Assembly: GCF_018143015.1 (NCBI RefSeq)
Contig: NC_054746.1
Span: forward strand, 42,226,201-42,290,200
Source: Lytechinus variegatus
Lineage: Eukaryota; Echinodermata; Echinoidea; Temnopleuroida; Toxopneustidae
Length of the DNA stretch: 64,000 nt
Direction: 5' to 3'
Below are positions 2,080-40,291 of this stretch, one piece after another; the first letter of the stretch is position 1, and each line of letters begins with the position of its first letter. The notes beneath the pieces are model-generated. The model was not told the DNA's origin and searched no databases. It saw nothing but the letters and a program-made list of their open reading frames with translations. Both the position numbers and the translations under genes were made by a program.

Positions 2080-5000
2080 ATGTACAATCCTAGTCAGCAA
2101 CAACATGGACAAATTGTTCCTGTGTCCGTTCACAAAAACCAGCAGGTAATAATTCTATTTCTAGCCTTTTCTAGCTCTAACATTAACGTTCTATAAACGT
2201 TTTTGTCAGCGTAGTATTACTAAGTAGTATTAGTAAGACTAAGTAAACATTCAGTTTTTGTCTCACCTGCAAAGCAAAGTGAGACTATAGGCGCCGCTTT
2301 TCCGACGGCGGCGGCGACGGCGTCAACATCAAATCTTAACCTGAGGTTAAGTTTTTGAAATGATGTCATAACTTAGAAAGTATATGGACCTAGTTAATAA
2401 AACTTGGCCATAAGGTTAATCAAGTATTACTGAACATCCTATTAGAGTTTCATGTCACATGACCAAGGTCAAAGGTCATTTAGGGTCAATGAACTTAGAC
2501 CATGTTGGAGGAATCAACATCGAAATCTTAACCTGAGGTTAAGTTTTTGAAATGTCATCATAACTTAGAAAATATATGGACCTAGTTCATGAGACTTGGA
2601 CATAAGGTTAATCAAGTATCACTGAACATCCTGCATGAGTTTCACGTCACATGACCAAGGTCAAAGGTCATTTAGGGTCAATGAACTTTGGCCGAATTGG
2701 GATATCTGTTGAATTCCCATCATAACTTTGAAAGTTTATGGATCTGATTCATGAAACTTGGACATAATAGTAATCAAGCATCACTGAACATCCTGTGCGC
2801 GTTTCAGGTCACATGACCAAGGTCAAAGGTCAATGAACTTTGGCCGAATTGGGTGTATCTGTTGAATTACCATCATAACTTTGAAAGTTTATGGATCTGA
2901 TTCATGAAACTTGTACATAAGTGTAATCAAGTATCACTGAACATCCTGTGCGAGTTTCAGGTCACATGATCAAGGTCAAAGGTCATGTAAGGTCAATGAA
3001 CTTTGGCCATGTTGGGTTTTTTGTTGAATAACCATCATATCTCTGTAAGTTTATTGGTCTAGTTCATAAAAAGTGGACATAAGAGTAACCATGTATCACT
3101 GAACATCTTGTGCGAGTTAGAGTAGTATTTAAAGTCAGCACTGCTGCTATATTGAACCGCGTGATGCAGGTGAGACGGCCAGAGGCATTCCACTTGTTCA
3201 GTTTATTTATTCAACCAATCATAAAAATTATTAGGTGACTTAGGCCTAACTTAGGTTAGGTTGTTTTAAATCGGCATTATCCTGGTTTAAGTCACCAGTC
3301 CATTAGTATTTCGTCAGCGCTGGTGTCCTTTCAACTCCCATGAACTATGTACAAAATGAGTGCACACACCTGAGAAGGGAGGTGACTTATTTAAAGGGGA
3401 AGTTCACCCTGACAACAAGTTTATTGTAAAAATAGCAGAAAAAATGATAAAAGATATTGCAGAAGGTTTGAGAAAAATTCATCAAATAATTAAAAAGTTA
3501 TTATAATTTCAATTATTTGATTTGTGATGTATTATAATTTCAATTATTTGATTTGTGACGTCATATTCGAGCAGCATTCCTACATAGCGAATGGTAAAAA
3601 ATCAATGAAATGTCATTTTCTCAGCAAATTGAAAATGGTTTTCACTGTACCTTTTGTATATCAATAGACAAATCATTTCACACCCGATCATGAATAGAAA
3701 ACAAATTTAAGTCATCAGGAACCATACAAAATTTGAAATTCATGCATTTTATATTACATAACACATGGGGCAGCTGCTCGTTTATGATGTCACAAATCCA
3801 AAACTTTGAACTCTAATAATTTCCTTATTTTATAACGAATTTTCCTCGAACCTTCACCAATATTTTTTTACTATCTTCCGGCTATTTTTACAACAAAGTT
3901 TTCTCCAGGGTGAACTTCCCCTTTAATGATTTAAAGAAGTAAGAGTCAGTTTCACACCTAACATTTAAACAACTGGAATCTGTTTGTTTTCTGTTTGGAG
4001 CATTTTTTATTAAAGTTCGATCTATCTAACGTTAGAGCCTACATTTTTTTTTCTTTTTTTACTTTAAAAAAATTGTTTTAATTTTGTATACAAGACTGTC
4101 CAGAACATTCCTATCAAAACTGGTTGTACTATTTTCTGTATAGGTATGGTTCATACATCTACATTAACTTTTGTTTCATGTAAAGTTATTGTGTTTTGTT
4201 GCAAGAATTGATGAATTGTCTGTTCAAGAATAATTATGTTAATTCATATTTAATTAGCTTGATGTAAAACCTTGTACTTCAATTACGTCTTTTATGTGGC
4301 AGTCATGGGCCACTTTTCATCATATGATGGCAACATCAGACCCAAACTAAAGAACAATCTAAAAAAAAAGTGTTAACAGACACATTAAATATACTGTATT
4401 GAAACATGCTGAATGCCCCAAGACCAAGGGGATTTACATTCATAGTGCAGTATGCATCAATGTAAATTCATTTTCAAACAGGATTTTCATAAATTTCTTT
4501 TGTTATTAGCGCAGACCTAGTTAGCACTGGTGATAATCATTATCTGTTTCTTTTTTGTGTTGTACAGGAAAATCAGGATGAAGGGCAGCAGAGGAGTCAT
4601 TATCCCCAGATAAGTTCCCAACAGAGTCAGTCCTATCTTTCTGTTCCATCCATTGGTACACCTTCTTTTGGTTCAGTTGGTAGTGTGACATCACTTGCAC
4701 CAGGTAGCAGCTTTATTCCTCCTTCCCCGATGGCTCCCTTAACACCTGCTACACCAGCGAGCAGTGAATCTTCGGGTATTGTTCCACAACTACAGTAAGT
4801 TCTATGGGTGATTTCAAGTTCACTGCTAAGGAGTAGTGTTGTTCTGTGTATCACAAACATCTATTGACAAGATAAAGCCTACATTCAGTACTATACACTC
4901 TAGACAGGAATAATCATTGTTTCTGGGGATTCATTTAACAATTTCTGGCATTATACTATAATCCCCATTCACATATTGGTGAGTGGAGCCAACACAGTTC

Positions 5001-8000
5001 AGTGGAACAACCAAAAATACAGAGACTGAAGCTTTTGGTCTTTAGAAATTCTTGCTACATTTAACTGTATACATTTGTGCACTTGGTTTTTTTTTAAAGG
5101 AATAGTGTGAGTAATGTGACAGGATTTTTTTTTTCAAACATATATTTTGAGAATGATACTGATTACTGAATGAGTTGGCTGAAGTGTGACCTGAGAACCT
5201 GTACCTGAGATCAATTTGATTTATGCTTGGATGTAGTAATTGTGTTTACTAGTATTTGTTTTTTTATTTTATGGCTATGTTTGTCATGTTCTTGTGACTA
5301 TGGGTTGCATTTCTGTATTTCCTATACTTTAAGTTACCCATTTGATGATAGTTTTAACAATCATTGTCTTTTATTTTTAATGTTTCTTTCATTTTGACCT
5401 TTCACCCTTTAGGAATATTGTGTCAACTGTAAATCTGAGTTGCAAGTTGGAACTCAAGAAAATTGCACTACATGCAAGAAATGCTGAATACAACCCAAAG
5501 GTAATATTATTAGAATGAAGTTTAAAAAAGGAAAACAAAGGAATTTACATTGAGAAATTAATTACAATGGGGATAGCTGGACTAAGTTGTTTCAAATAAG
5601 AAAGTTGTAAATATCATAGCTTGGTTAAAGAGGTGCAATATATTATATAACACAGATTATTATATGATATGATAAAGTGATAAAGATTTCTAAAGAAGAT
5701 GTATACATGTCAACAGGATTGGTCACCGAATGAAGTTCATATTCTATTTCAGGAGAAGAAAATTAACATTGGTTTGAAATCATTTTGTTATACATGTATG
5801 TAACAGAGATTTGCTGCAGTGATCATGAGAATACGTGAGCCAAGAACCACAGCTCTCATCTTTAGTTCAGGAAAGATGGTTTGTACAGGTGCTAAGAGTG
5901 AGGATGACTCTAGATTGGCTGCCAGGAAATATGCAAGAGTTGTACAGAAGTTGGGATTCGCTGTAAGTGGGGATTCTTGTTTTACTCTATTTCTTATCTA
6001 TCTTTGGAAGATGTGAAAAATGTTGGGGGTTTTTAAAGGCTCTGTAAAGGTAGATTCCATATCTTTGTTAGATGGTTATTAGTGTTGCAACAAATTCTTA
6101 TCAGATTTAATTTAGATTTGTTTGATCTTTTCCTTTCGAATTGAATTGAGTTCAGGATATATAATAATTTTTAGATAATAAGTAAGAAGCTGCCTTTCTT
6201 TGTAAAAAATGTTTTAACCATTGATTCTGCCTGATAACTTAGATTAAAATATCTCTAAACACTTCTTTGGTGGCAATGAAGATAACCAGTATAACTTCAT
6301 TAAAAATTAGTTGTAAATGATTCATAGCATAATCTCAAATGAGTTCATATCAATATGATTTACATTGTGAAATTATTCAGTTTGTCTTCAAGAATGCACC
6401 GTAAGTCAATCAAATTCAATTGTAAGGGAACAGAAGTTTAACCATTTAATTTTGGGGCACTCAAAATGTTAAAATCTGGGTGTGTGGATCTGTTCAATAT
6501 GAGCTATCCAAATGTTATTTCAATATAATGTTTCATTGACAATCATTTTGTTTTCTAATGAAAATGAGCATATTTCAGATTTTTGGAGTTGACAATTTCC
6601 TGAATCAAGCAACAATACAATTATACATATTCAGAAAGAATTTGAAGTTGATTCTTGGTTCAGAAATTCTTGAACATCATTAATGGCTATATGTCTTTTT
6701 ATGATATAAAACTTGGAATGCATGAATGTTAAACTGTAAAATTAGTTTAAACACCCACCTAGATTTTTATGCATGTACACACGGAACTAGTTCAGTTATT
6801 TGCTGAGGCGCATTTATTATATTTGCTCATCTGCTAGTATACTATCAAGGCTATTTCAAGACATTTCCTTAATGTGTTTGGCCCATAGTCTTAGCTTCAG
6901 TTTAATTTCAACTCTGGTCTAAAACTCTATATGGTTTAGATGCAGGTCCCTACGCTAACGAGCAAAAAGGCCAGATTCATCCAAATCGTCTCGTGGCTGA
7001 ATCCTTCTTGCAAAATCTTGTGATTCATGAGATTTTTTCTCTAAGAATTTACCTGATTTAACCTTAAGTCAAATGAAATATCATTGCACGATCAGATAGA
7101 GTAAATGTTACTCTTTCATATTGGCCATTTATTTTGTGAACAATATTTTGATAAATAAGTGAATTTCTGGCTTGGAAATGTGCCTCAAATTTTTCTTACT
7201 CTGTTTTCTTTTGCAAATTGTGCAAAACTTTTTATTTTGAGCCTCAATGATATATATTTATTTATAAGAACATATTTATTTAGGTACAAAAGATCAGCAT
7301 AAAACTGTTTTTCATGAATGACCTAATGGAAACATAAAGAACAACATAAATCATCATATCATACATGAAAATAAAGTCGAAATCTAAGTCAAAGATAACA
7401 ATACCTAGTAACATAAATAAACAAATATTGTTACTTAAATGATGATATGAATCAAACTAAAATATATCACCATAAAGCTGAATTTTGTACTTTCTCACAA
7501 TTCCACTCTTGATGTGCGGCACCTTTTAATTGGGTCAAGATCACACTTTTCCCACCAAGGTGCAAGACAAGATTTCTGAAATTTTGTAGTTCCATGAAAC
7601 CTAGAGTTCTGATTGGCTGGATAATGTTCACAAAACAACAGGCGCGGGTAATTTTAGGAGATTACCACATTGGAAGTGTCTCTTTGACCAATCAGAGTGC
7701 AGTATTCTTGTTTTCAAGCTGCTTTTTGTACTTGGCCAATGAAAAGTGATCTTGACCCGATTAAACCAATTCTTATTTTGAAACCTACAACTGTATACCA
7801 CACATATTCAGCTTTATCATGATCTAAAAATAATTTGGGCTCAAACAAAAATAAAATGTAAGAATAGCAGCTTTTGTCAGGTGAAAATAATTATTTTGTA
7901 GCATATTTTAGATCAAAGGTTTAACCTATATTACAAAATATTTTAATAAATTGCAAACACATGACTTAAAAGAATGTTTCTTCTTCTTTACAATGATACC

Positions 8001-10520
8001 AAAATCATGAAATTCGATGCCCAATCCGAATGAAAAGAGGTGTTTTGGTCCGCATCAAGCTCATTAAATATGCAAAACTTCTCTAGTCATGAATATTTGG
8101 ATGAAAGAAGCCAATTTCTTGGGACCTGCTGACTGACCGTAACTAACTTTGACTTTCTCAAATCTATGACTGCACAGGTTAATCCTATTGGCTTATCTCA
8201 CATTCAAATCAAAACTTTTTGGGAATAATTAACTAAATGGCTTTCTTCACTGTCAAACCACCAGGAAAGGGAACAATAAATATAAGAAACACTATGGTGT
8301 AAGCAAGACCTTTTTTTTTGCTTCTTGTATTAAACTTGAGCACAGAGTAGTACTAGCTTAAGTTAAATTGGATTTTAGAATATGTGTTTTGGGGTCTTAC
8401 TCAATCTTAAATCCTTGATTTCACTTTCGATCAACTTTGATATTGCTTCCTGTAAATAGTATTAATATTGATTTGAATAAAATTTTATGGTTAATAAGTA
8501 CATTATATTTTTATCTTTCTCCAGGCAAAGTTCTTGGATTTCAAAATCCAGAACATGGTTGGTAGTTGTGATGTTAAGTTTCCAATTCGTCTGGAAGGAT
8601 TGGTACTAACACATGGACAGTTCTCTAGGTAAGTTTAACATACATGTATGTACAGCTTACTTTGTTGTAGTACATATCATTTCAAAGACAGTGTTTTTAA
8701 GTAATACTAGTAAGACTTATGATTTCATGGAGTCAAGTAGTTTCAATTTATTTTGTAAATGGATAAAACTTTGATTGTATTCAGATTAATATATGCAAAT
8801 TATACAAATTGAAATGGTTTCAAATTCATCATGAAGCTTGGCTTATCAGCCCTTTGTCCACATTCCTTTATTAACCTGTCATATTTTGTGTCTAGCTCCC
8901 ATAACAGTTTTTTTTTATCCAATACATTTAAAACCTAGAATTTGGGGTTTTGTTTTACTTTCTCTTTATCTTACAAACTAAATTGTCAATAATTTATACA
9001 CCAAGGAACTTGTATTTCACATCGACAGGAACACTTAATTGGGTATTCATAGAAATTGTGTAACATGTGAATACATGTCTTTGTTTCATATTTTGCCATA
9101 GCACTTTTATGGATGGATGATCTGAAATTTCACTTGATTATTCTTGTGCTTTTCTGTCATTCCTTTCTATTTTTCTCCATTGATGTCTTTGATTCGCGCT
9201 CATTAGCTATGAACCAGAGCTATTTCCAGGTCTGATTTACAGAATGGTGAAACCACGCATTGTACTCCTCATCTTTGTTTCTGGAAAAGTGGTTTTAACA
9301 GGTAAACAATTCATGTAAAACAATGTTCCCTTTTTTGCATTTTGCGTTCTGCTTTTCTCTTTTCTTATATGGGAGGAGGAGATGGAGACTTCAATGTAAA
9401 TGAAATGAAACAGCATAAAAATGTTGACAAATTAATTAAACAAGTCCGGTGTGTGGATAATGCAAATTTACATGAGGAAATCCTTACATTTAAAAATTGT
9501 GATGGGGCAAAGCCAATTTCAGCCCTAGCAAAGAAAGTAAACAAGTCCCTCAGGGCACTTATCCATCTACGAACAGCAACCGTATCAACACAACACAGAT
9601 AATAGGATAGGTAGTCTTGTAGACATTTTGAAGGTGTGAATTGTTCATCTCTTTTTCTCACTCTCTCTCTCTTTGTCCTCTCTCTCTGAAACACATACAT
9701 ACCCTTTATCTCCTCCTCTCCTCCGTCAAAATAGAAACATAAAGTCAAACCAAACATTAAAGATGCTGAATAGTGGTCTAGGAATTAGACTAGTGAAAGA
9801 TGACTATTGAAGTATACAATTCCGTGAAACATTGAGATCCGACTTTGAGGCGAAACTCGGAACCCAATGAGTCAATATTTGTTCGTTCGTACGGACATGA
9901 GAACAGAGCTCATTGGGAAAAGGAGACTGAATAAAAATCATCTTGGCCTTTTCTCAGTCCTTTTCAGCTGTTCAAAGTAATATCTATCTAGGGTAACTAT
10001 CAATTTAAGAAATCTTTTTGATAAAATGAAGATGAATAATATAGCATGAAAATAAATCATATATGTCCAGAAATTCAAGCCAGTCAGAATTAATCTGCGC
10101 CTGAGGTCGAATTTCAATCCACAGCCCACCTCGGTTGATGGGCAAAGTACAGTGTAAACAATATATTTTCGCCGAATCCCCCGAGATGCAAGTCGATCAT
10201 TAGATTGTTCGTAAAAAGAATTCTCTAAAAAAGATTATTCGCTAAGTATAAAAATTCACAGGAATATTACTATTGCAATCCATGTATGTTGAATTTTAAA
10301 AAGAAGGTCATAATAAAATTATTAATATAATCATTAATCACTATATTTGAATAGTATGTGAAATCTTTTATAGATTGTCTGAAAATAAACATGAAAGATC
10401 TTTATAACTTGTTATTTTCTTTATTCTTCTCTTTCATTAGGTGCTAAAGTGAGGCAGGAGATCTATGATGCCTTCAATAACATCTACCCTATTCTGAAAT
10501 CCTTCAAAAAGACTACTTAG
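2080..10520 (+). CDS. TBP: TATA-binding protein (TBP), 7 coding exons
   Basis: TBP binds the TATA box and nucleates TFIID, TFIIIB and SL1 assembly in the nucleus. Coding exons are 2080-2145, 4568-4794, 5413-5500, 5807-5962, 8525-8628, 9207-9301 and 10441-10520. All junctions are GT/AG and all phases agree, giving 816 bases and 271 aa. Residues 1 to about 91 are a Q/S/P-rich N-terminus without the long polyglutamine run of vertebrates. About residues 92-271 form the two-repeat saddle, starting near [14 protein letters not shown]. The four phenylalanines that kink DNA are F129, F146, F220 and F237, with spacing 17/74/17 as in yeast TBP. The protein ends SFKKTT, as TBPs do. The start is the first ATG in frame, MYNPSQQQ. 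An untranslated upstream exon was not sought. Introns contain repeats but the exons look intact. TBP is distinguished from TBPL1 by near identity of the core to metazoan TBP as I remember it. Confidence 0.96.
2261..3199 (+). repeat. DR1-bearing dispersed repeat, copy 1
   Basis: It starts TCTCACCTGCA and ends near TGCAGGTGAGA then CCACTTGTT, so the ends are short inverted repeats. The inside is a degenerate tandem array of about 150-190 bp units. Typical units contain a CATCATAACTT motif, a GTTTATGGA motif, CACTGAACATCCTG, GGTCACATGA and AAGGTCAAAGGTCA. Perfect AGGTCA-A-AGGTCA direct repeats lie at 2466-2478, 2658-2670, 2820-2832 and 2973-2985. Three more copies occur in the window (starting 10820, 22595, 24512), all in the same orientation. 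No coding capacity was seen. The inverted ends suggest a non-autonomous DNA transposon, but no target duplication was established. Confidence 0.85.
3391..3926. mobile_element. TTAA-flanked MITE with long inverted ends
   Basis: The ends are TTAAAGGGGAAGTTCACCC and its reverse complement, and the inverted similarity extends for about 100 bp. TTAA at both edges (3391-3394 and 3923-3926) fits the target duplication of piggyBac-superfamily elements. No transposase is encoded, so the copy is non-autonomous. It sits in TBP intron 1. Confidence 0.88.
5963..8524 (+). other. TBP intron 4
   Basis: This is the longest TBP intron, about 2.6 kb and AT-rich. It holds one TTAA-edged MITE (7526-7764) and otherwise nothing recognised. 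Confidence 0.7.
7526..7764. mobile_element. Small TTAA-flanked MITE
   Basis: The left end is TTAATTGGGTCAAGATCACA and the right end is its near inverted copy, GTGATCTTGACCCGATTAA. Both edges carry TTAA, consistent with piggyBac-like target choice. Inner inverted segments around GATTGGCTGG and GACCAATCAG extend the palindrome. Length is 239 bp, with no coding sequence. Confidence 0.78.
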
Positions 10521-10819
10521 CACATGATTTGGTCGTATAACGTATGAAAGAGACTCTAATGAAATGGTGATCCTTGTATATTTTACCACCTGTGTTGATT
10601 TGCGATAACAGTATGTTATACAATATGTTTGAGGTGCATTATGAGACATTTCCAGAGATCAATGAGGATTACATAACATGTAAAGAGAGGAACTGTGCTT
10701 GCTTCTGGATCATTGATTCAATATCCGTTTTTTTCTACTATCAAGTTCAGCTGCCACCTTATTACGGATGGTGCATGATTCATAACTGGAGTTCAAAAGG
10801 AATATGCGTCTCCTTTTTG

Positions 10820-11806
10820 TCTCGCCTGCATAGTAGAGAGAGACTATAGGCGCCGCTTTTGCGGCGTCAACATCAAATCTTAGTCTAAGGTTAATATCGA
10901 AATCTTAGCCTAAGGTGAAGTTTTTGAAATGTCATAACTTAGAAAGTATATTGACCCAGTTCATGAAACTTACACATAAAGGTAATGAAGTATAACTATG
11001 CATCCTGCCTGAGCTTCAGGTCATATGACCAAAGGTCAAAGGTCATTTAGGGTAAATTAAATTTGGCCATTTTGGGGGTATTTGTTGAATTATTATTGTA
11101 ACGTTGAAATTTTATGGATCTAGTTCATAAAACTTGGACATAAAAGTAATCAAGTATCGCTGAACTTCCTGTGCGAGTTTCAGGTCACATGACAAAGGTT
11201 ATTTAGGGTTAATGAACTTTGGTCGTATTAGGGGTATTTTTTGATTTGCCATCTTAACTTTAAAAGTTTATGGATCTAGTTCATAAAACTTGGACATATG
11301 AGTAATCAAGTATCGCTGAACTACCTGTGCGAGTTTCAGGTAACATGACAAAGGTTATTTAGGGTCAATCAACTTTGGTCGTATTAGGGGTATTTTTTGA
11401 TTTGCCATCTTAACTTTAAAAGTTTATGGATCTAGTTCATAAAACTTGGACATATGAGTAATCAAGTATCACTGAACATCCTGTTGTGAGTTTTAGGTCA
11501 CATGAACAAGGTCAAAGGTCATTTAAGGTCGATGAACTTTGGCCATCTTGTAGGTAATTGTTGAATTGCCATCATTAATGAAAGTTTATGGATATATTTA
11601 ATAAATTGTAGACAAAGGGACAATCCAGTATCATTGCTCATCTTGCACAAGTCGTAGGTCACTTGATGTCATTTAGGGTCAGTGAACGTAGTAGCATATA
11701 TGAATGTTTTTTTTTTTTATTATTTCATAGTCATTTTCAAAGTCAGCACTGCTGCTATATTGAATCTCATGATGCAGACGAGACTGCCAGAGGCGCTCCA
11801 CTTGTT
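10820..11806 (+). repeat. DR1-bearing dispersed repeat, copy 2
   Basis: It has the same start (TCTCGCCTGCA) and end (CCAGAGGCGCTCCACTTGTT) as the other copies. Two perfect DR1 motifs remain, at 11033-11045 and 11509-11521. Other units have lost one half-site. It lies about 300 bp downstream of the TBP stop, so it may be transcribed in the TBP 3' untranslated region. Confidence 0.83.
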
Positions 11807-14417
11807 TTTTTATTGCAGTACACTAGCAAAATTTGAGGGAACATTTCCAGAGTAAAATTTGTGACTGTATATTATCAATGCTACATTGCCATTCACAATG
11901 CAGTGAAACTTGTATATGTTATTGTTTATTTTAAAGCAAGTTTGTAAAAAAATTTCTTCTGATATTTGTTTTGGAAGAGGGCATTAGAGAAAATTGTGTG
12001 GGTTTTGGGGTTGTTGAACAGATATTTCTGTCCCATCGATGTGACACTAAGGCAGATGGGCAACAATGAATATTCAAGGTTAGAATATTAATTTTCACTT
12101 GCAATGTAGATTGTAGTCTGAAAATCTAAAATAATTATGCTATATCCACAAATCCAACCCAGATTTTTGCAATCCATTAATTACGGCCAATACACGAGCA
12201 ACTGAAGCCAAGTCCAAGTCTTGGCTTAGTCTAACGTATTAGACTATATTACTATATTAGACCAAAATCATCTGATTCAGTTTTGAGCCATGTATAATCC
12301 GACTGGTCTTGACTTGAGAACTATTAAGGGGCGAAGATCTATGTCACATCTAATATTTTCATTCCATAGTTTTACAAAACTTTGTGTTAGCATATGCATG
12401 CAGCCAACTGACCCTACCTCAGCACTGACCGGGCCAGGGCGCCGGCACGGTTATGCCAGCCATGGCACTTGTATACTCAAGAGGTGGTGCTGGATTGTTT
12501 GGGCGCATTGATTTGTTGCAGCGAAATTGAAATGAAGAATGTATCAAGCTCACGTATCATTTTTATCATATTGATACCGGTATGCAAAGTCATAAAACCG
12601 TTGTCACCACCACGTAATATTTCAGTTAAAATACAGGTACAATTATTTCAGATTTTTAAGCATGATATTTGATGTAAAAACCTATCAAGCAAAAATAATG
12701 AAAAAGACGAAGTGAAAATGAATTAAATCTACAATCTACTAAAAAAGTGCTTTGAAAGGATATTCGTGGTCACAAAATGAGCTTGGCTAAATCCGGGTGA
12801 ACTTAGCGGACTGATTTATTTATGACAGAATTTAATCTTGTTTTACTGAAGATTTACAAAAAATTGAGACAATAATTTAGAAATAGTTTTGTTTCTCAAT
12901 TGTGGTACATTATTATTCTATTGTTTATATATTTTTGTTTCTATTATTTGAACCTGGTATTGTCATAATCTATTAGTTTACCTTTATTTTGCTATTACTC
13001 TGAGTGTGTTATATCAGTTCATTGTTTCGTTAGCATGACTACCAAATTGTTCTTGCACTTCAATTGTATGCACATATCGAGTTAACCTTCCTAATAGCAA
13101 CCCTGCATTTACATCTCAAAGTATTTCACCCGGAATCAAATATTTTTTTAATTTCAGTTTGAGCTGAGCCTTTTGAACAAAAACATGCAAGTGGTTAAAG
13201 TTTAAATTAAATGCCTGTAATAATTTTCTATTTTCTAACCATACAATTATGGTGTTCTTTATTTAAACAGGGAAGATGAGTGAAAATATAGAAAATGTGA
13301 ATAATGCAACCTAATTTCAGATATGATTTTTTAGTCCTCTGCTCACAAATGAGGCCCAGTGTACAGGAATTTTAAAATTTGCATAGATGAAGAAAGTATG
13401 CTATTTATGACAATGTTACATCATGTATTTTGCTTTTCTTCTTCTTGAAATCTTTTTTACCTTGTAATTTTTTTGGGGAAACTATTGATTTCATTTTTGT
13501 TGTAATGCGAAGCAAATTTATTTTCCTTAAAATCATGTCTACCCCAATAGGAAATTGAAGCTATAGAATTTAAAATTTCACTCAGTTTCACAAAACATGA
13601 CCCCCTAATGTGAACAGGTAACTCTGCCTAAGTCAAATATTTTGAGACCACAGAAATATGTTTGACTTTGAAGAAATATACCTCAGAAGAGGTATATTAT
13701 AACAAATGTTTTGAATGATCTGTTCTAAAGTATTTGATTCAACTTTGCAATTATTAGATATAAAGAAGGTCATCTTAGAGAGTTACCTGCATTTTAATTC
13801 ATTAGTTATCAAACATTACAATTTTTGTATTTTTTTTTTACAGCGGTGTGGGGGCATTGTAGTATTCAAAGTATGAAATTTATGTTCCATGTGAGCCCAT
13901 GTTATTTTCAAATTTGATTTCTACAAAAGAATTTTGGAACTTTTTGATACACTGTATCCTTGAAGAGTAATCCCTTTCAGCATCCCGGGAGTATAAACTA
14001 TAATGGAATTGTAAGTGTTTAAAGGGCCTTCATTATGAAGAAAAGATTACCAGTACACTTCAGAAGTCATAATCCATCAAATGGTCAATTATTCACATAG
14101 AGTTAGTGGATGAAACTTAGTGACTTGACTTTTATTACATTGGAATATTGGAATGGCAGTACCAATATGAAATTGCATTGTTTTTCCAAAGCCTTTTCTG
14201 TACATTTTGAATAGCCTTATGTTGGGAGTGTATGTATTGGAAAGGAAGGGTCTTTCTCAACCTCGGCATAGTTACTGCTATGGAACCCTCTCTATGTGAT
14301 ATTTTGTATTGTGTTGATGTAAATTGTATAAATGTAAATAAAAACATGAAAGTATTGATAAATAGTATTGTTTTTGTAAGTTTACTTTATTTTCCTTAGA
14401 TGTACAGTGTATTAAGA

Positions 14418-16484: not shown

Positions 16485-17480
16485 ATAATATAGGCGGATC
16501 CCGAGGCCCCCCCCCCCCCTATTGGCGGAGCAAAAAAGGGGGGGGAGAAATTAATGAAAAAAGAAAAAGAAGGGGAAGCATAAGAGGAGGAAGAGGAAAG
16601 AATAAAATAAGATGAGGGGAAGACTTGGAAAAAAATCATGTTACTATAAAATTTTCCCTCGCCCTTGCATTGCCTTGTAGGTGATTTACATATCTTGCTC
16701 AATCTGGAGCTTAAAATAAAAAAAAATAAAGTCAATGTACAAAACACATCAGCTCAGAAATCGAACTTTCATTATTTTGTTAGATTTTTTTTCAAAAGAG
16801 CTCTGTAAAAAAATATAATCGGTTTTATGCGTCAATCATAGGCTATCTCGCGCATAATGTCTCAAATGAAAGAAGAAAAGTTGGATATTTAAGTTATGAA
16901 GTTTCTTTTTTGAATAAGGCATGCAGAAAAAACTAACTCAAAATCGCAATTTGGTCTGAATATTAACATTTTCTGCTAGCTCTGCGCACTAGCAAAACTT
17001 GTCAGGTCCTGTATTTCATAAAGTTCTCAAAAGCAGCTAGCGCTCAGTACGTTCGCAATTTGATTGGTGCGTTATGTATATCTCAATATTAATTCTATAA
17101 CCATTAAAGTACTTAGAATCCCTAGTTCATGAGTTTAATAATCAAAAATTTTATTGATATTGAAAATATATGAACTCATGCATCTTATTCATAATTACAA
17201 AATTGCTTTAAATGTCCAGTTTTCAGGCCATAATATTTTATTTCGCGCTCTCATTAGGCTTATAAGATAATAAATAAAATATTAATTTGATATTGCCCTT
17301 TTTTCAAAATGAAATATCGACGAGTTTCATCTCTATTAGGACGAGAGAAATAGGAAGATATTCATTTTAATCATATGTTCTTATGTCCCGGTCTTAGTGT
17401 CGAAATTCTAAGTAATATTAATGAAACATATTAGCTCTTTTTAACTGTGATCCTTTTCCTACAAAGTGCTTGGCATAAAT
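16485..17480. repeat. Poly-C/GGCGGAGCAAAAAAGG repeat family
   Basis: It begins TATAGGCGGATCC, a poly-C run, then TATTGGCGGAGC and a poly-G run. The following kilobase aligns by eye with 48690-49500: shared phrases include the GCTAGC...GCACTAGC-type segments and TGTATATCTCAATATT. No coding sequence is seen. The family is not identified; boundaries are approximate. Confidence 0.6.
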
Positions 17481-17486
17481 AGCTTA

Positions 17487-18495
17487 AATCCGGGGGGAGG
17501 GGGGGGGAGGAGTCAAAATTCATTGATGTACACATGCGTGACCAAATTATTTCCAAACACCCCGAAGGACCCGAAGGACCCGTAACAATAAAACATTCCT
17601 GTACTTGTTTAGGGGTTCATTTCAGGTAATATTTGCCAAGAGTATCGTTTTGTTTCCAATACTTGTTAAGGGTAGGGTTTTACACACCAATACTTGTTAA
17701 GGGGTGCATTTTCAAAATATGGAAATTACGTGTTTACCCGGGGGGGGGGGCCACTTCCATTCACGAGTGGATACCATGCGCGACCATGGGGTCTCGAAAA
17801 GCACCCTAAACACGTAATTTCCATATTCTGAAAATGCACCCCTTAACAAGTATTGGCGTGTGAAACCCTACCCTTAACAAGTATTGGAAACAAAACGATA
17901 CTCTTGGCAAATATTCCCTGAAATGAACCCCTAAACAAGTACAGAAGTTGTTACGCCGGTTGTTACGGGTCCTTCGGTCGTCGGCTTTACCCTATTTGGT
18001 ATAGTACGACCCCAACTTCTACACCTCGCGCAAATCGGACTCTAAACACGAAGTGTTGGGGCAAAAAGGACATCCTTTTTAAAACATTTTAATTTTGTTT
18101 TATCATCCCCGCAAATTCGACCCTAAACACGTAATTTTCCTAGCGAAATAGACACCCTTTTTTCATTATTTTTGTGTTTTTGACACCCTTATCACGTTAC
18201 GTACGTAACGTGCCCTATCGTGAAAAGGACATCCTTTTTACGTGTTTTTTTGGTCGCGCATGGTATCCACTCGTCAATGTAAGTGGCCCCCCCCCCGGGC
18301 GTGTTTAGGGTGCTTTTCGAGATCCCATGGTCGCGCATGGTATCGTGAATGGAAGTGCCCCCCCGGGCTTTAGGGGTTTATTTTGCACCCGGGTTAGTGC
18401 ACACAGAAAAAAAACTCGTATAGGGGGTGTTTGGAAATGAATTGGTCACGCATGTGTACAGCAATATATTTGACTGCCCCCCCCCCCCCCGGGGG
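17487..18495. mobile_element. Outer element containing nested copies
   Basis: A pair of inverted segments frames the block. The left one carries TGTACACATGCGTGACCA then TTTCCAAACACCCC. The right one (about 18425-18495) carries the reverse complement, GGTGTTTGGAAATGAATTGG then TCACGCATGTGTACA. Within it lies an older copy of the CCACTTCCATT family (from about 17566 to 18370), and inside that copy a younger one (17737-18299). Its own target duplication was not found. Confidence 0.7.
17737..18299. mobile_element. CCACTTCCATT-family element with 8-bp duplication
   Basis: The inverted ends are CCCGGGGG...CCACTTCCATTCACGAGTGG and the matching inverted copy ending GGCCCC...CCGGG. It is flanked by the direct repeat CGTGTTTA at 17729-17736 and 18300-18307. 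That 8-bp duplication splits an older copy of the same family, whose halves read across the insertion. Eight-base duplications are typical of hAT-type transposons, but the terminal bases are not diagnostic. No transposase is encoded. Related material occurs at 36795-37591. Confidence 0.87.
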
Positions 18496-18776
18496 AGGGA
18501 GAAACAGCAAATTAACGTGTTACTGCATACATATGACATCATCTGTCATAAATATGAAGATTGTCTATCAAGAAACTCATGCGTTGCCAAGTTTTAAAAT
18601 TGTCAAAATACTGGTATTATAATACATAGATATAGGTTTAAATAATATTTTATGTAATAATAATATTATAAACAATATTTTTGAAATTATCTAATGCTCC
18701 TTAAAGGGAAAATCGATTTTGAATTTTGTTTTAATTTGTTTAATTTTCCTTGGATTGTAATAGATTAGCGTTAAAG

Positions 18777-21700
18777 ATGGCGACTTACATGGACGGCGAA
18801 GAAAATATTCCGGACGACGAAAATGGACGATTTATTCCTCATTTTGGTATTGGAGGGATGTGTATTGCATTTGAGAAGTGCCCATTGTGTTTTACTACAA
18901 GAAGGCCGTTTACATGTGAAAGATGTTTGGAGAATGGGGATTTCAGTCATTCATCAAGCAAAAGTTCCACCGAGCAGTCGGAGACTGACCCGCACCCAGA
19001 GAGGTAAACAAAACAAAAACCTGGCTTGATCAGCTGTCTGTCTGCGTGCTGCGCCTGCACTAAAGCGAATGTCGCAATGTCGTAATGACTTTGTTTGCCT
19101 GTGTTGAGCTGATGACTAATTGCATAAATGCATGACGATGGCGAGTCTGTCCCGTCTTTGCCAGGCAAAAAGTAGCATGATATACAAATTAGTAGGCCTA
19201 ATAATAAAAGTTTTGATCATGCTGATGTAAATTAGTTTCTTTCAGAACTGTCTTAATAGGGTGTCTGATCGAAGCCACACTGAGTGAAAGTGAAAAGTGC
19301 GAGTGTAGGCATAAAACAGGCTGATTTTCATTTATTTTTATAATACCGGTATGGCACATTTTTCGGAAAATTCAGGCTGCCAAAAAATGTGATATTAGTT
19401 TATTTCTAAATAATGTTTGGGATGTATGAAAAGAGAAAATTTAGGGACTTTGTACAGTATAAGGACAAGTTTTCACATGATTATTTCAAATCACTCATTC
19501 AATGAACAAGGTTATAATATAACCTTGTTCTCATCTCAGTTATATCTCCATGTGTGACAAAATAAAGGTGGCAATGTTTGGCTTATCTTTCTCTTTTTAT
19601 TCGGGGCAAATGCTTGATTTTTTTACACTGACAGTTTCCATTAGACCTGTTAATCATACCGTTTGGTTCTCATTTAAATTTGATTCTTTATATCATTTTT
19701 TCTTAATTAAAAATAGAGATCAAAAAATGAAAATTTTCTTGCCATATTACTTTCCACCAATAGAGGGCGTACACAAAAATATGCCCAAAATTCAAGTTTT
19801 TTAGCACTCTGGTGAAAACAAAAATTATTCCCACATTACTAATGATAAATAAATTGCAACTATATGGAAATTAGTAATTTTGGTCACAAAAGTGATATTT
19901 TAATGATTTTTTAAAGTGTGTGCTCTATACAGCATTGGCATACCATAGTCCTACCTGTAGATTCTCCACAGGCCAGATGGTAGCAGTGAACAAGTGTTTC
20001 AAATAAGGATTTTAGAGAAAGACGTATCCGTTTTCTCATTTTAAAATCTAGAGATTTTTGTAATCGATTCATGACATTGGATTCTAAAGGTAAGCCGTGT
20101 GGGTGTGTTGAGATTAGGGGAAATGCAGGTTTCCCTAACCCAGGGAGCCCAGGGGCTTACTGTGTATTTGGCCATAGACACGGGACTAGGGTAATTTATG
20201 GTCAAAATATTTATAAAACTGAATTGTGAAAACAGAAATTATGCATTTATTACGCCAATAATTGGTGAAGGTCTAACATGTGGCAGTATCCTGACATCGA
20301 GGCACAGACTGGAACCTCAAAAAAACAAAAAGTTCTGTCGTGATACCTTTCCTAATTCTTTAAAAATTCATAACAAAATGGCCGATCGAGACTGGGGTAG
20401 AAGGTAACTTAGTAGGAGAGAACTTTTCGTTTTATTTAGTCTATGGCTACATACACGGTAATCCCCTGGGCTCAGGCGGGAGCTTCCTGGGTTACATTTC
20501 CCCATGCATTTACTATAGCCTTGGCTTGAGTACTCCATGATGATGTTTTTTGAATATTTTGACATACTTCTTCATCATTGAGCCTTGACACTTCCCATAG
20601 ATGCGTATAAAGGTTCCAAAAATTGGTTGATAAAAAAGTTTTAAGGTTTCTTACCAGACTGATCTTGTGTAGATCCGTTTGTCAACAAAGCAAATACAAT
20701 AGATCTGACCCTTGAACCGCTTCATTGTTACGTATATTCGATTAGCAATGTTACAAAATTCCGTTTTGAAGAACAATTTATAAATACAAATTATTATTTG
20801 ACAAATACTAAAATTTAATACGTGATTATAAATTTATAAATGTATTGATTAGATCATGAAAATCACCGTTTCCTTACCAGTGATATGATCCATATACATA
20901 ATGTGTTGTATTTTTTTACACTTTCAATATTTTGTTGCAGGTATTGTGAAAAACTTGACAGACTACTAAGGCTGAGAAGTGAGAGAGACAGGTTGTTGTC
21001 AAAGTAAGTAATTTCATTTGATTTTAAAACAAGCTTGAAGTTGTGCTTGAGAGTCATTTTATTATTCAATTCTTACCTGAAGAAAACTATGATCAGAATA
21101 ATTATCACATTGCCATGTGTTTCCGCTGTGTAAGGCAGAATGCAATTAATATCTTTTGAAATTGTTCATGTGCTTTAAAAGCAGCAGTCCACCCACACAT
21201 CAAGTTGATTATGATTTTTAAAAAGGGAGAAAAGCATTATTGAAGGTTTGATGAAAGTCCATTTAAACAGAAGAAAGCTGTGAATTTTGTAGAGTTTTAT
21301 GTCAAATGCATATGGTTGCTCCATCCCAAGACCAAAATCCAATTGAAACCAGTTGGATTTCCAACTGGTTTCAATTGGTTTCAATTGGTTTTAACTGGAA
21401 TTTAACAATTTCCAGTTGAAACCAATTGAAACCAGTTGGGCAACTGGAAATCCTAACTGGAACCAGTTGGGCAACTGGAAATCCTAACTGGAACCAGTTG
21501 GGCAACTGAAAATCCTAACTGGAACCAGTTGGGTAAATGGATATGACTTCCAACTGGAAATGATTTCTAACTGGAACCAGTTGGGTAACTGGAAATCCTA
21601 ACTGGAACCAGTTGGGCAACTGGAAATCCTAACTGGAACCAGTTGGGTAACTGGAAATGACTTCCAACTGGAAATGATTTCTAACTGGAACCAGTATTGG

Positions 21701-24700
21701 AACCAGTTGGGTAACTGGAAATCCTAACTGGATCCAGTTGGGTAACTGGAAATGATTTCCAATTGGTTTCCAATTGGAAATTTTCCAGTTACCCAACTGG
21801 ATCCAATTGAAACCAGTTAATTTGCATATTTTCTGCCAGTGTGCACGGATTAATGTTTTATGAGATTCATCACAATTTACAATGTATCTATTTAATTTTT
21901 TTCAATTTGAAGTTCCACACTTTTTTCAGATAAGTGTTTCCAATACTTAGCAGTGAAAACCATGTTCATAAATATTATAGATTATAATTAAAACAGATTC
22001 AAAGATAATTAGTACACCACTAACTGTTACCAAATTACATCAAATAATAATACATATATTTGAAGAACTCCAATATGAATATATACCTATGAAAGTCTGT
22101 ATTTTATCAATGCCCTTTACATTGGTATTAATAGACAAATAACACTGCTTCTGTGTTGGCATGAGCAATAGTTAGTGCAAATGCTAATTAATTTGTAACT
22201 AATTAAGTTCATTCCAACTGGAAGTTCCAATTGGATCCAGTTGGAAACCAATTGGTTTCAACTGGTTCCAGTTGAAAACCAGTTGCCTCCAATTCGTTTC
22301 AACTGGAACCAATTGAAACCAGTTGCCTCCAATTGCATTCAACTGATTTTAATAGGGAAATTGGAACAACTGGAACCAATTGAAACCAATAGCCAACTGG
22401 TTCCAGTTGCCCAATTGGTTTTAACTGGAACCAGTTGGCAACTGGTTTTCAATTGGAACCAGTTGTTCCAATTTCCCTATTGAAACCAGTTGGCCAACTG
22501 GTTTCAATTGGTTTTGCTCTAATTGGTTTCAACTGGATTTTGGTCCTGGGATATTTGCCATGGGATATGAATACTACGGATTTTCATTTTTTTTTCTCGC
22601 CTGCATAGCAGAGCGAGGCTATCTAGGAACCGCTTTTCTGACGGCGTCGGTGTCAACATCAAATCTTAACCTAAGGTTAAGTTTTTTAAATGTCATCATA
22701 GCTTAGAAAGTATATGGACCTAGTTCATAACACTTGGACATAAGGGTAATCAAGTATCACTGAACATCCTGTGTGAATTTCAAGTCACGTGACCAAGGTC
22801 AAAGGTCAATGAACTTTTGCCATGTTGGGGGTATTGAATTACCATCATAACTTTGAAAGTTTATGGATCTGATTCATGAAACTTGGGACATAAGAGTAAT
22901 CGAGTATCACTGAACATCCTGTGCAATTTTCAGGTCACATGACCCAAGATAAATGAACTTTGGCCATGTTGGGGGTACTTATTGAATTACCATCATAATT
23001 CTGTAAGTGTATTGGTCTAGTTCATAAAACTTCAACATAAGAGTAATCAAATATCACTGAACATCTCATGCTAGTCCAGGTCACATGATCAAAGTCAAAG
23101 ATCATTTAAGATCATTGAATTTTGGCCATTTTAGAGGTAATTATTAGATGGCTGTCATAACTTTCAAAGTTTATAGATCAGTTTATAAAATGTGGATATA
23201 GGGGTAATCAAGTATAACTGACAAGTCTTAGATCACATGATCAAGTTCAAATGTCATTTATTGTAAATGAACGTAGTATTGTATCATTATATGAATGGTG
23301 TTTTTTGTGAATAATTATTTTATAGTACTTAGTTTTCAAAGTCTGCACTGCTGCTATATTGTATTGTGTGATGCAGGTGAGACTGCCAGAGGTGCTCCAC
23401 TTGTTTTTAATTCACGAGGGCAGTTAGCATGCAAAAGTTTTGGCCTTTTCAATAATGAAGATTTAATTATCTGATAAATTTTGACATAATATTCAGAAAC
23501 CTTTTTACTTTCCTTTTATTTTCTTCACTACTCATTTTTTGTTTTATTTTTGGTTTTATAATGGGGGACTTTTGGGGAACATGCCTACCCCCCATCTGTC
23601 TGCCTGTGGCTCTTCCTACATTCAACTTACCACCAGGGTAAACTGAAGTTTTCTCTCAAAATGTTTGATTGATGGATATTATATTGAATGAGTGAATGTT
23701 ATTGTTCATCTATTTCTAGACTTGCCAATAGACTTAAGGAGAGGAATTCAGTTGCTGATAAGGTATGTGTGGTATTAAATTTCTAGATAAACAATTTCCT
23801 TTGAAATTATTTCAAGTTTGCAATAATATCTATAATCTATTATTTTTTGAAGTATTATGTAATTTTCTTTTTGAAATATTTAAAATATGAAAGCAATCCA
23901 ATAACATTTTTGTTTATTGTAATTTCACCACATTCAGATTAAAGAATATAAAAAAATATACTCCATTGTATTTTATTATAAAAAAAATCTTATGTAGGCC
24001 TTATTGTATGTCACGATGAACTGATCACTCACATTGTTGATGCACATAAAATGTCAGAAACCTGAGTCAGAGCTGCCAAGTAGTACGGATTTTCAGTATT
24101 TAGTACTGAAAAATGAGAAGAATACGGATGGTTTCATGCAAAATACTGATTTCTCAAGTTTCAGTTATGTGTGTTGTCCTATGGTATTTCTTTGAAAATA
24201 CTGATTTCCTCACCAAAATACTGATTTTCAGCTTTAAAAATACTGAAATGTTCTTGTCCAGGTTGGCAGCTCTGCAGTGATTCACCTGATTCAGAAAACA
24301 TTGCTGGTCTACAGATGTATTCATTCATCTTCGACTGTAGGTTGGCTGTCATGCAAAGTGACGATAACATAGAAATCATTTGTTGAATTTATGGGTCCAT
24401 CTTAACAAAAACTAGCAGAGTTCTGAAAAGGCGGTGAGATTTGTATATTGCTTCTTTTTTCACTATTGATTGTAAAGTTACACTATTGCCTCTATAAATG
24501 TGCCATTTTTGTCTCGACTGCATATCAGAGCGAGACTATAGGCGCCGCTTTTCCGATGGCAGCGGCGACAGTGGCATCATCAACATTGTAATCTTATCCA
24601 AGGTTAAGTTCTTGAAATGTCATAATAACTGAGGAAATATATGGACCCAGTTGATGAAACTTAAACATAAGCATAATGGTAATCAAGTATTACTGAACAT

Positions 24701-27700
24701 TTTGCTGGAGTTTCAGGTCATATGACCAAGGTTAAAGGGCATTTAGTGAACTTATACCATGTTAGGGAAATTTACATCAAAATCTTAACCAAGTTTAGTT
24801 TTTGAAATGTCATAACTTGGAAAGTTTGTGTATTTAGTTCATGAAAATTGGACATGGTATACACTGAAAGTCTGTTGTGAGTTTCCAGTCACATGACCAA
24901 GCTCATAGGTCATCTTGGGTCAAACTCAGTGAACTTTGCCCATGTTGGGGGAATTTGTTGAATTGCTATCATAACTGAGAGTTTATGGATCTAGTTGATG
25001 AAATTTGGACATTAGTTGGGGTGATGGTTTAACACTGAACATCCTGTCTGAGTTTGAAGTCACATGACTAGGTCAAAGGTCATCTTGGGTCAATGAAATT
25101 TGGCCATGTTGGGTTATTTGTTGAATTGCCATCATAGCTCTGAATGTTTGATCTAGATAATGAAATTTGGATATGAGAGCAATCAAGTATCAGTGAACAT
25201 CCTGTGCAAGTTTCAGGTCACATGACCAAGGTCAAAGTTTATTTAGGGTCAAAGAACTTTGGCCAGAGGAATTTACCAAATTGCCATCATAACTTTGAAA
25301 GTTTATAGATCAAGTTTATAAAACTTAGACATAAGAGTAATCACATATCATTGAACATCCTGCATGAGATTTAGGTCACATGATCAAGGTCAAAGGTCAT
25401 TTAATGTCAATGAACATATTCTATTATATAACTTGTGTTTTTTTTTTAATTGTTCAGTAGTTGTTTTTCGAAGTCAGCACTGCTGCCATATTGAATGGTG
25501 TAATGCAGGCGAGACTGCCAGAGGCGCTCAACTTGTTATGTTAATTTTTGCTATTTTTTGTTTTTATTAATGCAGCAATGGGAGGTGTCACTCATGAAAG
25601 GAAGGTTAGAATGGACTCGAATGGCAATACAAGATGAAAGAATCATGATGGAAAAAGGTAGGTATTTTTTTCTTGTGTTTTGAAATGTGACTTTATTAAG
25701 GATAATTTATTTCCATTCATAGACTAATAATAAGTAAAATATTTCGATTAAGATTTTTCATAAAGCTGTTTTAAAAAGTTGTAAATATTAATTAATGCCT
25801 ACATGTATAGCATGACATGCCAGAATTTGAGTAAAAATTAAAAGTTAATAATAACGCAGTTCTTGTATAACGCATATCACATTATGTCATAACATCCCTA
25901 TGCGCTTCCAAAGGACTTGGATATCATTACCCTGGCTTTAGCCCCGCAGCCTTTTACAGCGCGGTGGCATTTCAAGGAATTACTTACTGCCAGGTACCCA
26001 TTTATCTCACTTGGGTTGAGTGCAGCACAACATGGATGAATTCCTTGCTGAAGAAAATTATGCCATGGCTGGGGTCGAACCCACAACCCTCTGTTTCAAA
26101 GTCAGAAGACTTATCCACTGGGCCACAAAGCTCCACAGAAGGTTGCTCTGAAATATCAAGAAATTAACTGTATTTCAATTAATCTAATGCAAGGAAGTAA
26201 AGTAAGCAACTGCCAAGAAGATGGTTTTAACAGTAAAAGTGATAACCATCAGTATCTGCATATATATATTCATTTTAAACAGAACTTCTAAGAATTATTA
26301 AAGACACTTGTTAAGCTTGCCATATATCAGTCATTGTTAAGCTTATCATAAGGAATAACTTTATGAAAAAAAAACCCTGCACACTAACATTGGAGTGTTT
26401 TGATGATTTCCTTACATATCATTTCAACATGTCTTCAGAAGAAATCTTTGTTTTTTCTGATTAATTGCTGTGATTTATCATACACTGAAGTCTAAATATT
26501 CCTTTTATCCCATCAGATAAGCAATCATTAATGAAACATCTGGATGAACTAAGAGCTTTAAAGGTCAAGAGAGAAGAACATAACAAGAAAGTGCTCAAAA
26601 TACAGAAATATCTAGGTAAAATGTGTTTCCTGTTTCACCATTGTGAATGTCGTATGTGGTTTCACCATTTAACAATTTTTATGCCCTTCTGAAATAAAGC
26701 AATTGTTATCCTTGAATATAAAAATAACAAGTTGAAATTGAACATTATGTTGTCTGTTAGTGACCAGTACAGTTTGGTATGTATAACTCAACATTGTGAT
26801 TATTCAGACATGGGGTACAACAGTTCAGCATCATGTTGTGTACAAAGTCTTGGGATGTGAAGCATATTGAATGTTGCAGAGGCAAGAGACCTTTGTTTTA
26901 TCAGCCATGCTACAATAGACCAAGTCAGTTTTGGCATTTTTTATGGTAATTTGTAATCGGGGGGGGGGGGGGGGCTTCAAGTATGCATAGAAAAAATCAT
27001 GCACTAACAAAGTACTTTTAAATGATATCTTATCCCATTGAAAGTGCTTTTATTCTTATTTAGAAGCTCCCTAATTATGGCCATCATAACGTATAGTGCT
27101 ATGAAGTCAGATTCGTCTGCATGGTGTGCAGATCAAACTCTTTCAAAAGTTATAGCACAAATTCACAAAATAAGTTTTTTAAAGAATGTACCAACAAAAT
27201 CTTTACATCATTTAACCAAAATCACAACATTGTCATTAAGTCATGTCATGATGTCTTTTGCAACTATCAACAATTTTTCATCCGTTAATTATTATTATTT
27301 TTTTATTATGTCTTATTTTACCAGGGTGACTCTGTCAGTGGGTCAACACTGGAGTACAATAATGAAAATACATTAGAAAAACAATAACAAAACGTGTACA
27401 TGAAACTTATTGTCAACTACATATAGTTCAGTAGAGTGGAGTCTGCAACCATATGGTGTCTGTTATGTGAAATTGTTTTATTATTATACTGATATTGGTG
27501 ATAATTATAGATATATATGATATATTTTACTGTATTTAGTGAATGTGAAGTAATTTACTAATGGAAATTCATGAGGGGTGTTGCATAGTTTCAGGTCACT
27601 TTCTAGAAACTTTCAGAAATGTTGGTTTAGAAGATGCCTGCCTTACATCATGCGGCCAACGATCCCACTCCACTGCACCAACATGGGAAAAAGCTTATTT

Positions 27701-39799: not shown

Positions 39800-39809
39800 G
39801 ATAGTTGGT

Positions 39810-39825: not shown

Positions 39826-39853
39826 GTTTGCATGAAGACGGAAGAATTCCTTC

Positions 39854-40291
<438 letters not shown>

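What the first reader, a model, noticed from the sequence alone, without database searches (positions are those of the whole stretch)
2261..25537. Dispersed repeat family carries nine perfect DR1 nuclear-receptor sites around TBP and ATG14
Four co-oriented copies (2261, 10820, 22595, 24512) are built of decaying units with AGGTCA-A-AGGTCA. Perfect copies lie at 2466, 2658, 2820, 2973, 11033, 11509, 22796, 25070 and 25387, often followed by a further (A/G)GGTCA. DR1 is the target of RXR heterodimers, HNF4 and COUP-TF. A transposon that spreads arrays of DR1 could seed hormone- or lipid-responsive control; here it sits in TBP intron 1, just past TBP, and in two ATG14 introns. The motif is read directly; the regulatory role is inference.
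Basis: partly seen in the sequence, partly recalled or inferred. Interest (0 to 1): 0.75.

Follow-up and report, generated by a model that had tools for sequence, protein, structure and literature searches.

The report
Transposon that spreads hormone-receptor DNA sites
A small transposon has helped scatter about 51,000 perfect copies of a hormone-receptor binding sequence through this animal genome, and the sequence seems better protected while the element spreads than after it has landed, as if it serves the transposon more than the genes nearby.

Summary
All nine AGGTCAAAGGTCA sites are exact, on the + strand, and inside four co-oriented copies (0.001 expected per strand). The window's own genome (869.6 Mb) has 50,969 perfect copies against 27 for the reversed control. 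In 20 fixed 10-kb regions, 9 of 12 DR1s lay in this repeat. The copies have most of the anatomy of a non-autonomous Helentron (HINE): 11-bp subterminal inverted repeats, a 5' hairpin, a tandem array and a fixed ...ACTTGT end in T-rich DNA. The 3' palindrome is weak and no autonomous partner with the same ends was shown. On 174 units, variants shared between elements are depleted in DR1 (8 events against 20.0 expected, p=0.001; stricter control 8 against 15.2, p=0.02). Single-element variants are not depleted overall (33 against 37.9), but this averages a deficit in young classes (17 against 27.8) and an excess in old ones (16 against 9.9). The best reading is constraint mainly in spreading lineages: a role in the element's own life cycle, not general host exaptation. 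Receptor binding is untested, and a hairpin is a live rival. Copies C and D appear to share one ATG14 intron, not two.

The parts
2260..3198 (+). Element A (HINE-like), upstream of the first placed TBP exon
   Evidence: 5' and 3' end scans; subTIRs match 11 of 11
10819..11806 (+). Element B, just downstream of TBP
   Evidence: end scans; subTIRs 10 of 11
22594..23405 (+). Element C, in an apparent ATG14 intron
   Evidence: end scans; subTIRs 9 of 11
24511..25537 (+). Element D, same apparent ATG14 intron, ending within 40 bp of a splice-acceptor AG
   Evidence: end scans; subTIRs 10 of 11
2366..3121 (+). Core array of A, 5 units (the last stops before the DR1 block)
   Evidence: nhmmer
10932..11691 (+). 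Core array of B, 5 units
   Evidence: nhmmer
22694..23276 (+). Core array of C, 4 units
   Evidence: nhmmer
24621..25418 (+). Core array of D, 5 units
   Evidence: nhmmer
2466..2478 (+). perfect DR1
   Evidence: exact match
2658..2670 (+). perfect DR1
   Evidence: exact match
2820..2832 (+). perfect DR1 (unit with a 10-bp deletion)
   Evidence: exact match; alignment
2973..2985 (+). perfect DR1
   Evidence: exact match
11033..11045 (+). perfect DR1
   Evidence: exact match
11509..11521 (+). perfect DR1
   Evidence: exact match
22796..22808 (+). perfect DR1 (unit with a 10-bp deletion)
   Evidence: exact match; alignment
25070..25082 (+). perfect DR1
   Evidence: exact match
25387..25399 (+). 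perfect DR1
   Evidence: exact match
2260..2285 (+). 5' subTIR GTCTCACCTGC plus inverted repeat GTGAGAC (hairpin) of A
   Evidence: DNA fold z -3.45
3166..3198 (+). 3' subTIR GCAGGTGAGAC and terminus ...CCACTTGTT of A
11774..11806 (+). 3' subTIR and terminus of B
23373..23405 (+). 3' subTIR and terminus of C
25505..25537 (+). 3' subTIR and terminus of D

Best explanation
Each copy is a non-autonomous rolling-circle transposon of the Helentron/HINE type whose central tandem array is made of units centred on a perfect DR1 among other nuclear-receptor half-sites. Shown here: the repeat, its ends, its abundance, and that DR1 is the least variable part of the unit between elements, while old copies do not keep it. 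Inferred: the DR1 works for the transposon. Host receptors that bind DR1 (HNF4, COUP-TF, RXR partners, perhaps FTZ-F1 or ERR through the YCAAGGTCA extension; names and preferences recalled) sit on the array in germ cells or early embryos, keep the DNA open or active, and so raise the chance that the element is used by transposition machinery supplied by autonomous elements. Several units per element keep at least one site working. Effects on neighbouring host genes would be a by-product at a few loci at most. I put the HINE-like identity at about 0.85 and the receptor-recruitment function for the element at about 0.4.
For: Anatomy: subTIRs with 0, 1, 2 and 1 mismatches of 11 in A-D, the same 22-bp distance from 3' subTIR to end, T-runs at the 5' junction; 5' hairpins with z about -3.1 to -3.5 in A, B and D and -1.56 in C. 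Abundance: 50,969 perfect DR1 against 27 control; 6,673 exact 3'-end 17-mers, control 0; 20,505 exact copies of an extended 27-base unit context, control 0. Constraint, on 174 units that span DR1 (142 from 3'-end loci, 14 from fixed regions, 18 from the window), counting each window copy as an element: shared-variant events 8 against 20.0 expected, p=0.0013; 8 against 15.2, p=0.023, without columns that differ between unit classes. The earlier version, with the window as one locus, gave 7 against 19.6 and 7 against 14.6. Over all classes DR1 is the least variable of 142 13-column windows. 0 of 13 DR1 columns differ among five unit-class consensuses, against 29 of 102 upstream columns. In 22 young elements 7 of 1365 DR1 cells differ from the class consensus against 495 of 15575 elsewhere. 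Single-element events are 33 against 37.9. The genome holds 14 Helitron_like_N matches, 8 of them in open frames above 3,000 aa, so a possible helper exists.
Against: No binding, expression or chromatin data. The shared/single contrast is not clean: in young classes single-element events are also low (17 against 27.8, p=0.014; stricter 17 against 24.1, p=0.066), and stricter shared events there give only p=0.056; in the old group shared events are not clearly low (6 against 10.1, p=0.11) and single ones are high (16 against 9.9, p=0.036). By unit counts DR1 ranks 2 of 142 windows in young classes but only 32 of 142 in the old group. In young elements 2 of 139 shifted masks do as well. The other half-sites are not uniformly kept: the first AGGTCA has four versions in five class consensuses, and GGGTCA has 0.267 shared events per column, like control segments. 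The arm that can pair with DR1 is constrained too (0.132 against 0.090 for DR1 and 0.25-0.30 in three control segments). Window units alone are marginal (5 of 148 mask shifts as good, with indels concentrated in DR1). No ends of an autonomous element were seen, and 3' ends fold no better than shuffles. Units are related, and class consensuses came from part of the same data, so p values are approximate.
Confidence: 0.45

Rival explanations
1. Host exaptation: the DR1 arrays are widely used as host enhancers for hormone- or lipid-responsive genes, which keeps them intact.
For: Sites are real and numerous; copies sit in or beside TBP and ATG14. In young classes single-element variants are low in DR1 (17 against 27.8, p=0.014), which selection after insertion could also give. 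Alu-borne DR2 and HNF4 sites are bound in human cells (PMC1785376, PMC3252374; abstracts read).
Against: Single-element variants are not depleted overall (33 against 37.9) and are in excess in old copies (16 against 9.9). In units 8-14% diverged 10 of 23 keep DR1, at 14-20% 4 of 14, beyond 20% 0 of 7. Selection on tens of thousands of separate insertions is implausible (inference).
Confidence: 0.1
2. The constrained feature is a palindrome, not a protein site: AAGGTCAAAGGTCATT pairs with AATGAACTTTGGCC, and the hairpin matters for rolling-circle replication or array amplification.
For: A consensus of the block folds with z -3.98, and both arms have few shared events.
Against: No pair shows a compensatory change (0 of 13 pairs in 15 units), though variation is low and the test weak. 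The 'first' unit class changed its 3' arm at two positions while DR1 stayed exact. A 10-bp deletion class removes the loop and keeps DR1.
Confidence: 0.22
3. No function: a few successful masters happened to contain DR1, and the apparent constraint reflects few founders, conversion between units, or unit-class mixing.
For: The stricter control weakens the effect (8 against 15.2, p=0.023); one of the two other AGGTCA-type half-sites is not constrained; the non-receptor word ATCACTGAACATC is also well kept, 28,030 genome copies.
Against: The same 13-mer is exact in five unit classes and is the least variable of 142 windows over all classes. DR1 has 1.8 times the copies of that non-receptor 13-mer, although some DR1s lie outside this repeat (3 of 12 in the fixed regions).
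Confidence: 0.23

Closest known systems
HINE / DINE-1-like non-autonomous Helentrons (Thomas et al. 2014, PMC4067079; passages read)
   Same: subTIRs of 11-15 bp, inverted repeat after the 5' subTIR (DINE-1), microsatellite or central tandem repeats, T-rich insertion sites, no coding capacity.
   Different: 3' palindrome weak here; 3' subTIR ends 22 bp from the end rather than about 38-60 as in the mite; autonomous partner with the same ends not shown.
Tsp transposons of Strongylocentrotus purpuratus (Cohen, Liebermann and Kedes 1985; not read, known only through PMC4067079, which lists it as a sea urchin DINE-1-like element)
   Same: Same kind of element in a sea urchin; probably the same superfamily (inference).
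   Different: Sequence not compared; the paper is not held.
Cg_HINE elements of the Pacific oyster (PMC7492417; section 7 and passages read)
   Same: HINE ends around short satellite-like arrays.
   Different: No receptor half-sites in the parts I read; sequences not compared.
Alu-DR2 retinoic acid response elements (PMC1785376; abstract, passages and part of the tables read)
   Same: A mobile element spreading about 100,000 consensus receptor sites.
   Different: The abstract says Alu-DR2s arose largely by deamination of a methylated CpG in a non-consensus AluS motif; here DR1 is in the consensus of five unit classes. That paper's Table 1 gives 11,230 relaxed DR1s in the human genome; here 50,969 strict ones.
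HNF4alpha sites in Alu repeats (PMC3252374; abstract read)
   Same: Transposon-borne receptor sites, some bound in vivo.
   Different: Many variant sequences, described there as low-affinity sites; a different element class.

Membership tests
HINE (non-autonomous Helentron) | subTIRs of about 11 bp or more near both ends | tested here: met
   11 of 11 in A; 10, 9 and 10 of 11 in B, C and D
HINE (non-autonomous Helentron) | inverted repeat next to the 5' subTIR (DINE-1 type) | tested here: met
   5' hairpin predicted in all four, z -3.45, -3.09, -1.56, -3.09
HINE (non-autonomous Helentron) | microsatellite and/or tandem central repeats | tested here: met
   19 units in four copies, mostly 150-164 bp apart; GGC-rich stretch after the hairpin in A
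HINE (non-autonomous Helentron) | palindrome near the 3' end | tested here: inconclusive
   a 4-bp stem in B, C and D and a longer imperfect one in A; 3' ends fold no better than shuffles, z -0.48, 0.39, 0.68, 0.89
HINE (non-autonomous Helentron) | insertion between T and T without target duplication | tested here: inconclusive
   5' flanks end in T-runs in A-D; 28 of 40 sampled 3' ends read ACTTGTT followed by differing DNA; no empty site examined
HINE (non-autonomous Helentron) | autonomous RepHel element sharing the ends | tested here: inconclusive
   14 Helitron_like_N matches, 8 with open frames above 3,000 aa; the one examined also has DUF6570; their ends were not obtained. A separate complete family copy lies near one of them
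Functional DR1 response element | RGKTCA N RGKTCA sequence | tested here: met
   nine perfect sites
Functional DR1 response element | binds a nuclear receptor and alters transcription | not testable with these tools
   no binding, chromatin or reporter data

The most novel reading that the evidence does not exclude
The DR1 block is a built-in receptor-recruiting module of a Helentron-type element, maintained by selection on transposition: host nuclear receptors in the germline or early embryo license the element. As a by-product this genome carries about 51,000 consensus DR1 sites that could act as a receptor sink or as a reservoir of latent enhancers.
Probability: 0.3. Interest if true: 0.75.

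Novelty: new variant of a known kind. Interest (0 to 1): 0.53.

Why it matters
Transposons are often said to spread receptor sites by accident, as in Alu. Here the site looks like part of the element's own conserved structure, so it can be asked directly whether a DNA transposon exploits host nuclear receptors to spread. The number of consensus sites also matters to anyone interpreting HNF4, COUP-TF or RXR motifs in this genome: in the small sample taken, 9 of 12 perfect DR1s were this repeat.

Tried and rejected
General host-level conservation after insertion was tested and not found over all classes. Hairpin covariation was tested: no compensatory pair. A second repeat carrying DR1 (L009) first looked like independent recurrence in another family, but its exact context occurs only 45 times genome-wide, and its core has only weak similarity to this unit outside the half-sites (masked score 28; shuffles mean 18.0, maximum 31 of 300); I dropped it as a pillar. 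The first AGGTCA half-site was at first counted as support and is not: it differs between unit classes. The family was sought elsewhere: viral contigs with five patterns from this family and one from the L009 repeat and genome contigs with one gave no match. Rfam at gathering thresholds gave only a tRNA and two histone stem-loops. Literature, open-access library only: the DR1 string with Helitron, 0 papers; the string AAGGTCAAAGGTC, 3 papers, none on transposons by title; sea urchin, Helitron, nuclear receptor and two more terms, 0 papers; four of five NR/Helitron terms, 21 papers, none of the 20 listed with Helitron; two of five terms, 400 papers, none of the 40 listed with Helitron. So I found no report of DR1 in Helitrons there. 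A lead from memory that fish and bivalve repeats have similar GGTCA-rich cores was tested only by one viral contigs pattern and one string search of papers (0 papers).

Rows dropped and limits of the sample. The unit test used 174 units that span the DR1 block and score at least 30 bits. Partial units, CpG columns, and columns with fewer than 5 units were left out. One search counts a variant as shared if it is in two or more units, even of one locus; require two loci (the window being one); one search requires two elements. Unit classes were built from 22 of the 40 3'-end loci that have a well-scoring unit next to the last, and the same units are in the test. Five of the 40 loci (L032, L034, L035, L042, L056) had no unit and 12 of 40 no perfect DR1. 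The 40 loci are all from contig C1, picked by hand from the first 100 listed 3' ends; the 20 regions are fixed round-number positions on C1-C12, not drawn at random. L001-L008 and L029-L031 were not used in the conservation counts.

Full report
What was checked. The nine sites are exact and co-oriented; by composition about 0.001 per strand were expected in the window. They lie only in four elements, recovered independently by scanning for their ends. Nineteen core units were found. TBP and ATG14 exons were located with recalled human probes and by reading translations.

The element. From 5' to 3': T-run; GTCTCGCCTGC or a variant (5' subTIR); a short loop and an inverted repeat, predicted to fold as a hairpin (z about -3 in three of four copies, -1.56 in C); TATAGGCGCCGC (altered in C); a GGC-rich stretch in some copies; the array; AGTCAGCACTGCTGCTATATTG; 3' subTIR GCAGGYGAGAC; 22 bp; end at ACTTGT. 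Within 80 bp of the 3'-end 17-mer, 31 of 40 sampled loci carry GCAGNNGAGAC, 28 of 40 ACTTGTT, and 19 of 40 both, by exact pattern. This is close to HINE anatomy as described for mites, flies and oysters (PMC4067079 and PMC7492417; passages and one section read). The weak points are the 3' palindrome and the unproven helper. The genome holds Helitron replication genes, 8 of 14 matches in open frames above 3,000 aa; the one I examined also has a DUF6570 domain, and a separate complete copy of this family lies near it.

Scale. Perfect DR1: 25,906 forward and 25,063 reverse in 869.6 Mb, control 16 and 11. The 3'-end 17-mer: 3,385 and 3,288, control 0. A well-kept non-receptor 13-mer of the unit: 28,030, control 16. 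An extended unit context of 27 fixed bases: 20,505, control 0. In 20 fixed 10-kb regions 12 perfect DR1s were found, close to the genome density; 9 lie in this family's units, 2 in another repeat in L009, 1 is unassigned. Relaxed half-site pairs in the 40 3'-end loci number DR1 123, IR1 122, DR4 101 and DR8 54, with the other spacings examined at 0-2. Most units are thus a lattice of half-sites and not a lone DR1.

Is DR1 conserved? Window units alone are ambiguous: base identity 0.938 in DR1 against 0.875 elsewhere, but gaps 0.171 against 0.024, and 5 of 148 shifted masks do as well. I therefore took 40 elements by their 3' end, without looking at DR1, plus the fixed regions and the window: 174 units span the block, 135 with DR1 intact in register (118 of 142, 9 of 14 and 8 of 18). 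Splitting variants by whether they recur in two or more elements gives, over all classes, 8 shared events in DR1 against 20.0 expected (p=0.0013) and 33 single ones against 37.9 (p=0.23). Dropping columns that differ between unit classes leaves 8 against 15.2 (p=0.023) and 33 against 35.0. Counting the window as one locus gives 7 against 19.6 and 34 against 38.3, and 7 against 14.6 and 34 against 35.7.

What weakens this. The single-element average hides two opposite trends: a deficit in young classes (17 against 27.8, p=0.014) and an excess in the old group (16 against 9.9, p=0.036). In young classes both kinds are low, shared ones more so (2 against 9.7). Under the stricter control the young classes alone reach only p=0.056 (shared) and 0.066 (single), and in the old group shared events are not clearly low (6 against 9.3, p=0.15). 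DR1 ranks first of 142 windows over all classes, second in young classes and 32nd in the old group. Recurrence is only a proxy for a change made before insertion; some single variants will also be older than the insertion.

Reading. A site held across the lineages that spread and lost in old landed copies is most simply doing something for the element. Receptor binding is the natural candidate because the most constrained window is a perfect DR1 and the other constrained stretch, AATGAACTTTGGCC, is DR1-like on the opposite strand (motif knowledge recalled). Not all half-sites behave so: the first AGGTCA differs between classes and GGGTCA varies like control segments. A palindrome is the main rival: the two constrained stretches pair, and the consensus block folds well. 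Covariation has little power to decide. One unit class broke pairs in the 3' arm without change in DR1, which slightly favours the protein reading.

Against known systems. Transposons that spread receptor sites are known: Alu repeats hold over 100,000 DR2 sites, which arose largely by CpG deamination (PMC1785376; abstract and passages), and HNF4 binds many Alu sequences (PMC3252374; abstract). HINEs with satellite-like arrays are known. I found no report joining the two (open-access library only, listings capped). So I file it as a new variant of a known kind, with an unusually large number of perfect sites and a pattern of variation that points to the transposon rather than the host as the beneficiary.

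Noticed in passing
L009:3245-3670 (minus strand), G000:C1: A different repeat with 13-bp inverted ends (TTATGCCTCCGCC), a GTCC microsatellite and two units with GGTCACAAGGTCAAAGGTCA sits directly against a copy of this family. Its exact DR1 context occurs 45 times genome-wide.
   Followed up: partly
25537-25575: Element D ends within 40 bp of an apparent ATG14 splice-acceptor AG, so its 3' end abuts the splice region.
   Followed up: no
units at 2718, 22694, 11098, 11250 and 22843: Deletions in the window's units concentrate among the half-sites; a 10-bp deletion leaves a perfect DR1 (2718, 22694), others destroy it, as slippage between direct repeats would.
   Followed up: partly
21430-21753 and 22224-22465: Arrays of palindromic ~31-bp units (AACCAGTTGGGCAACTGGAAATCCTAACTGG and relatives) lie just before element C.
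   Followed up: no
17499-18488: Nested inverted repeats with long G/C runs (arms 83-98% complementary).
   Followed up: no
39786-40228 and 42468-42928, minus strand: ORFs that read like histones H2A and H2B (recalled), each followed by a histone 3' stem-loop match.
   Followed up: no
47812-48276 and 51012-51560: Two minisatellite-like stretches whose frames read as repeats such as CSADICSADICS.
   Followed up: no
G000:C4:2135854-2497953: Six of the 14 Helitron_like_N matches cluster within 0.4 Mb of contig C4, four of them in open frames above 3,000 aa.
   Followed up: partly
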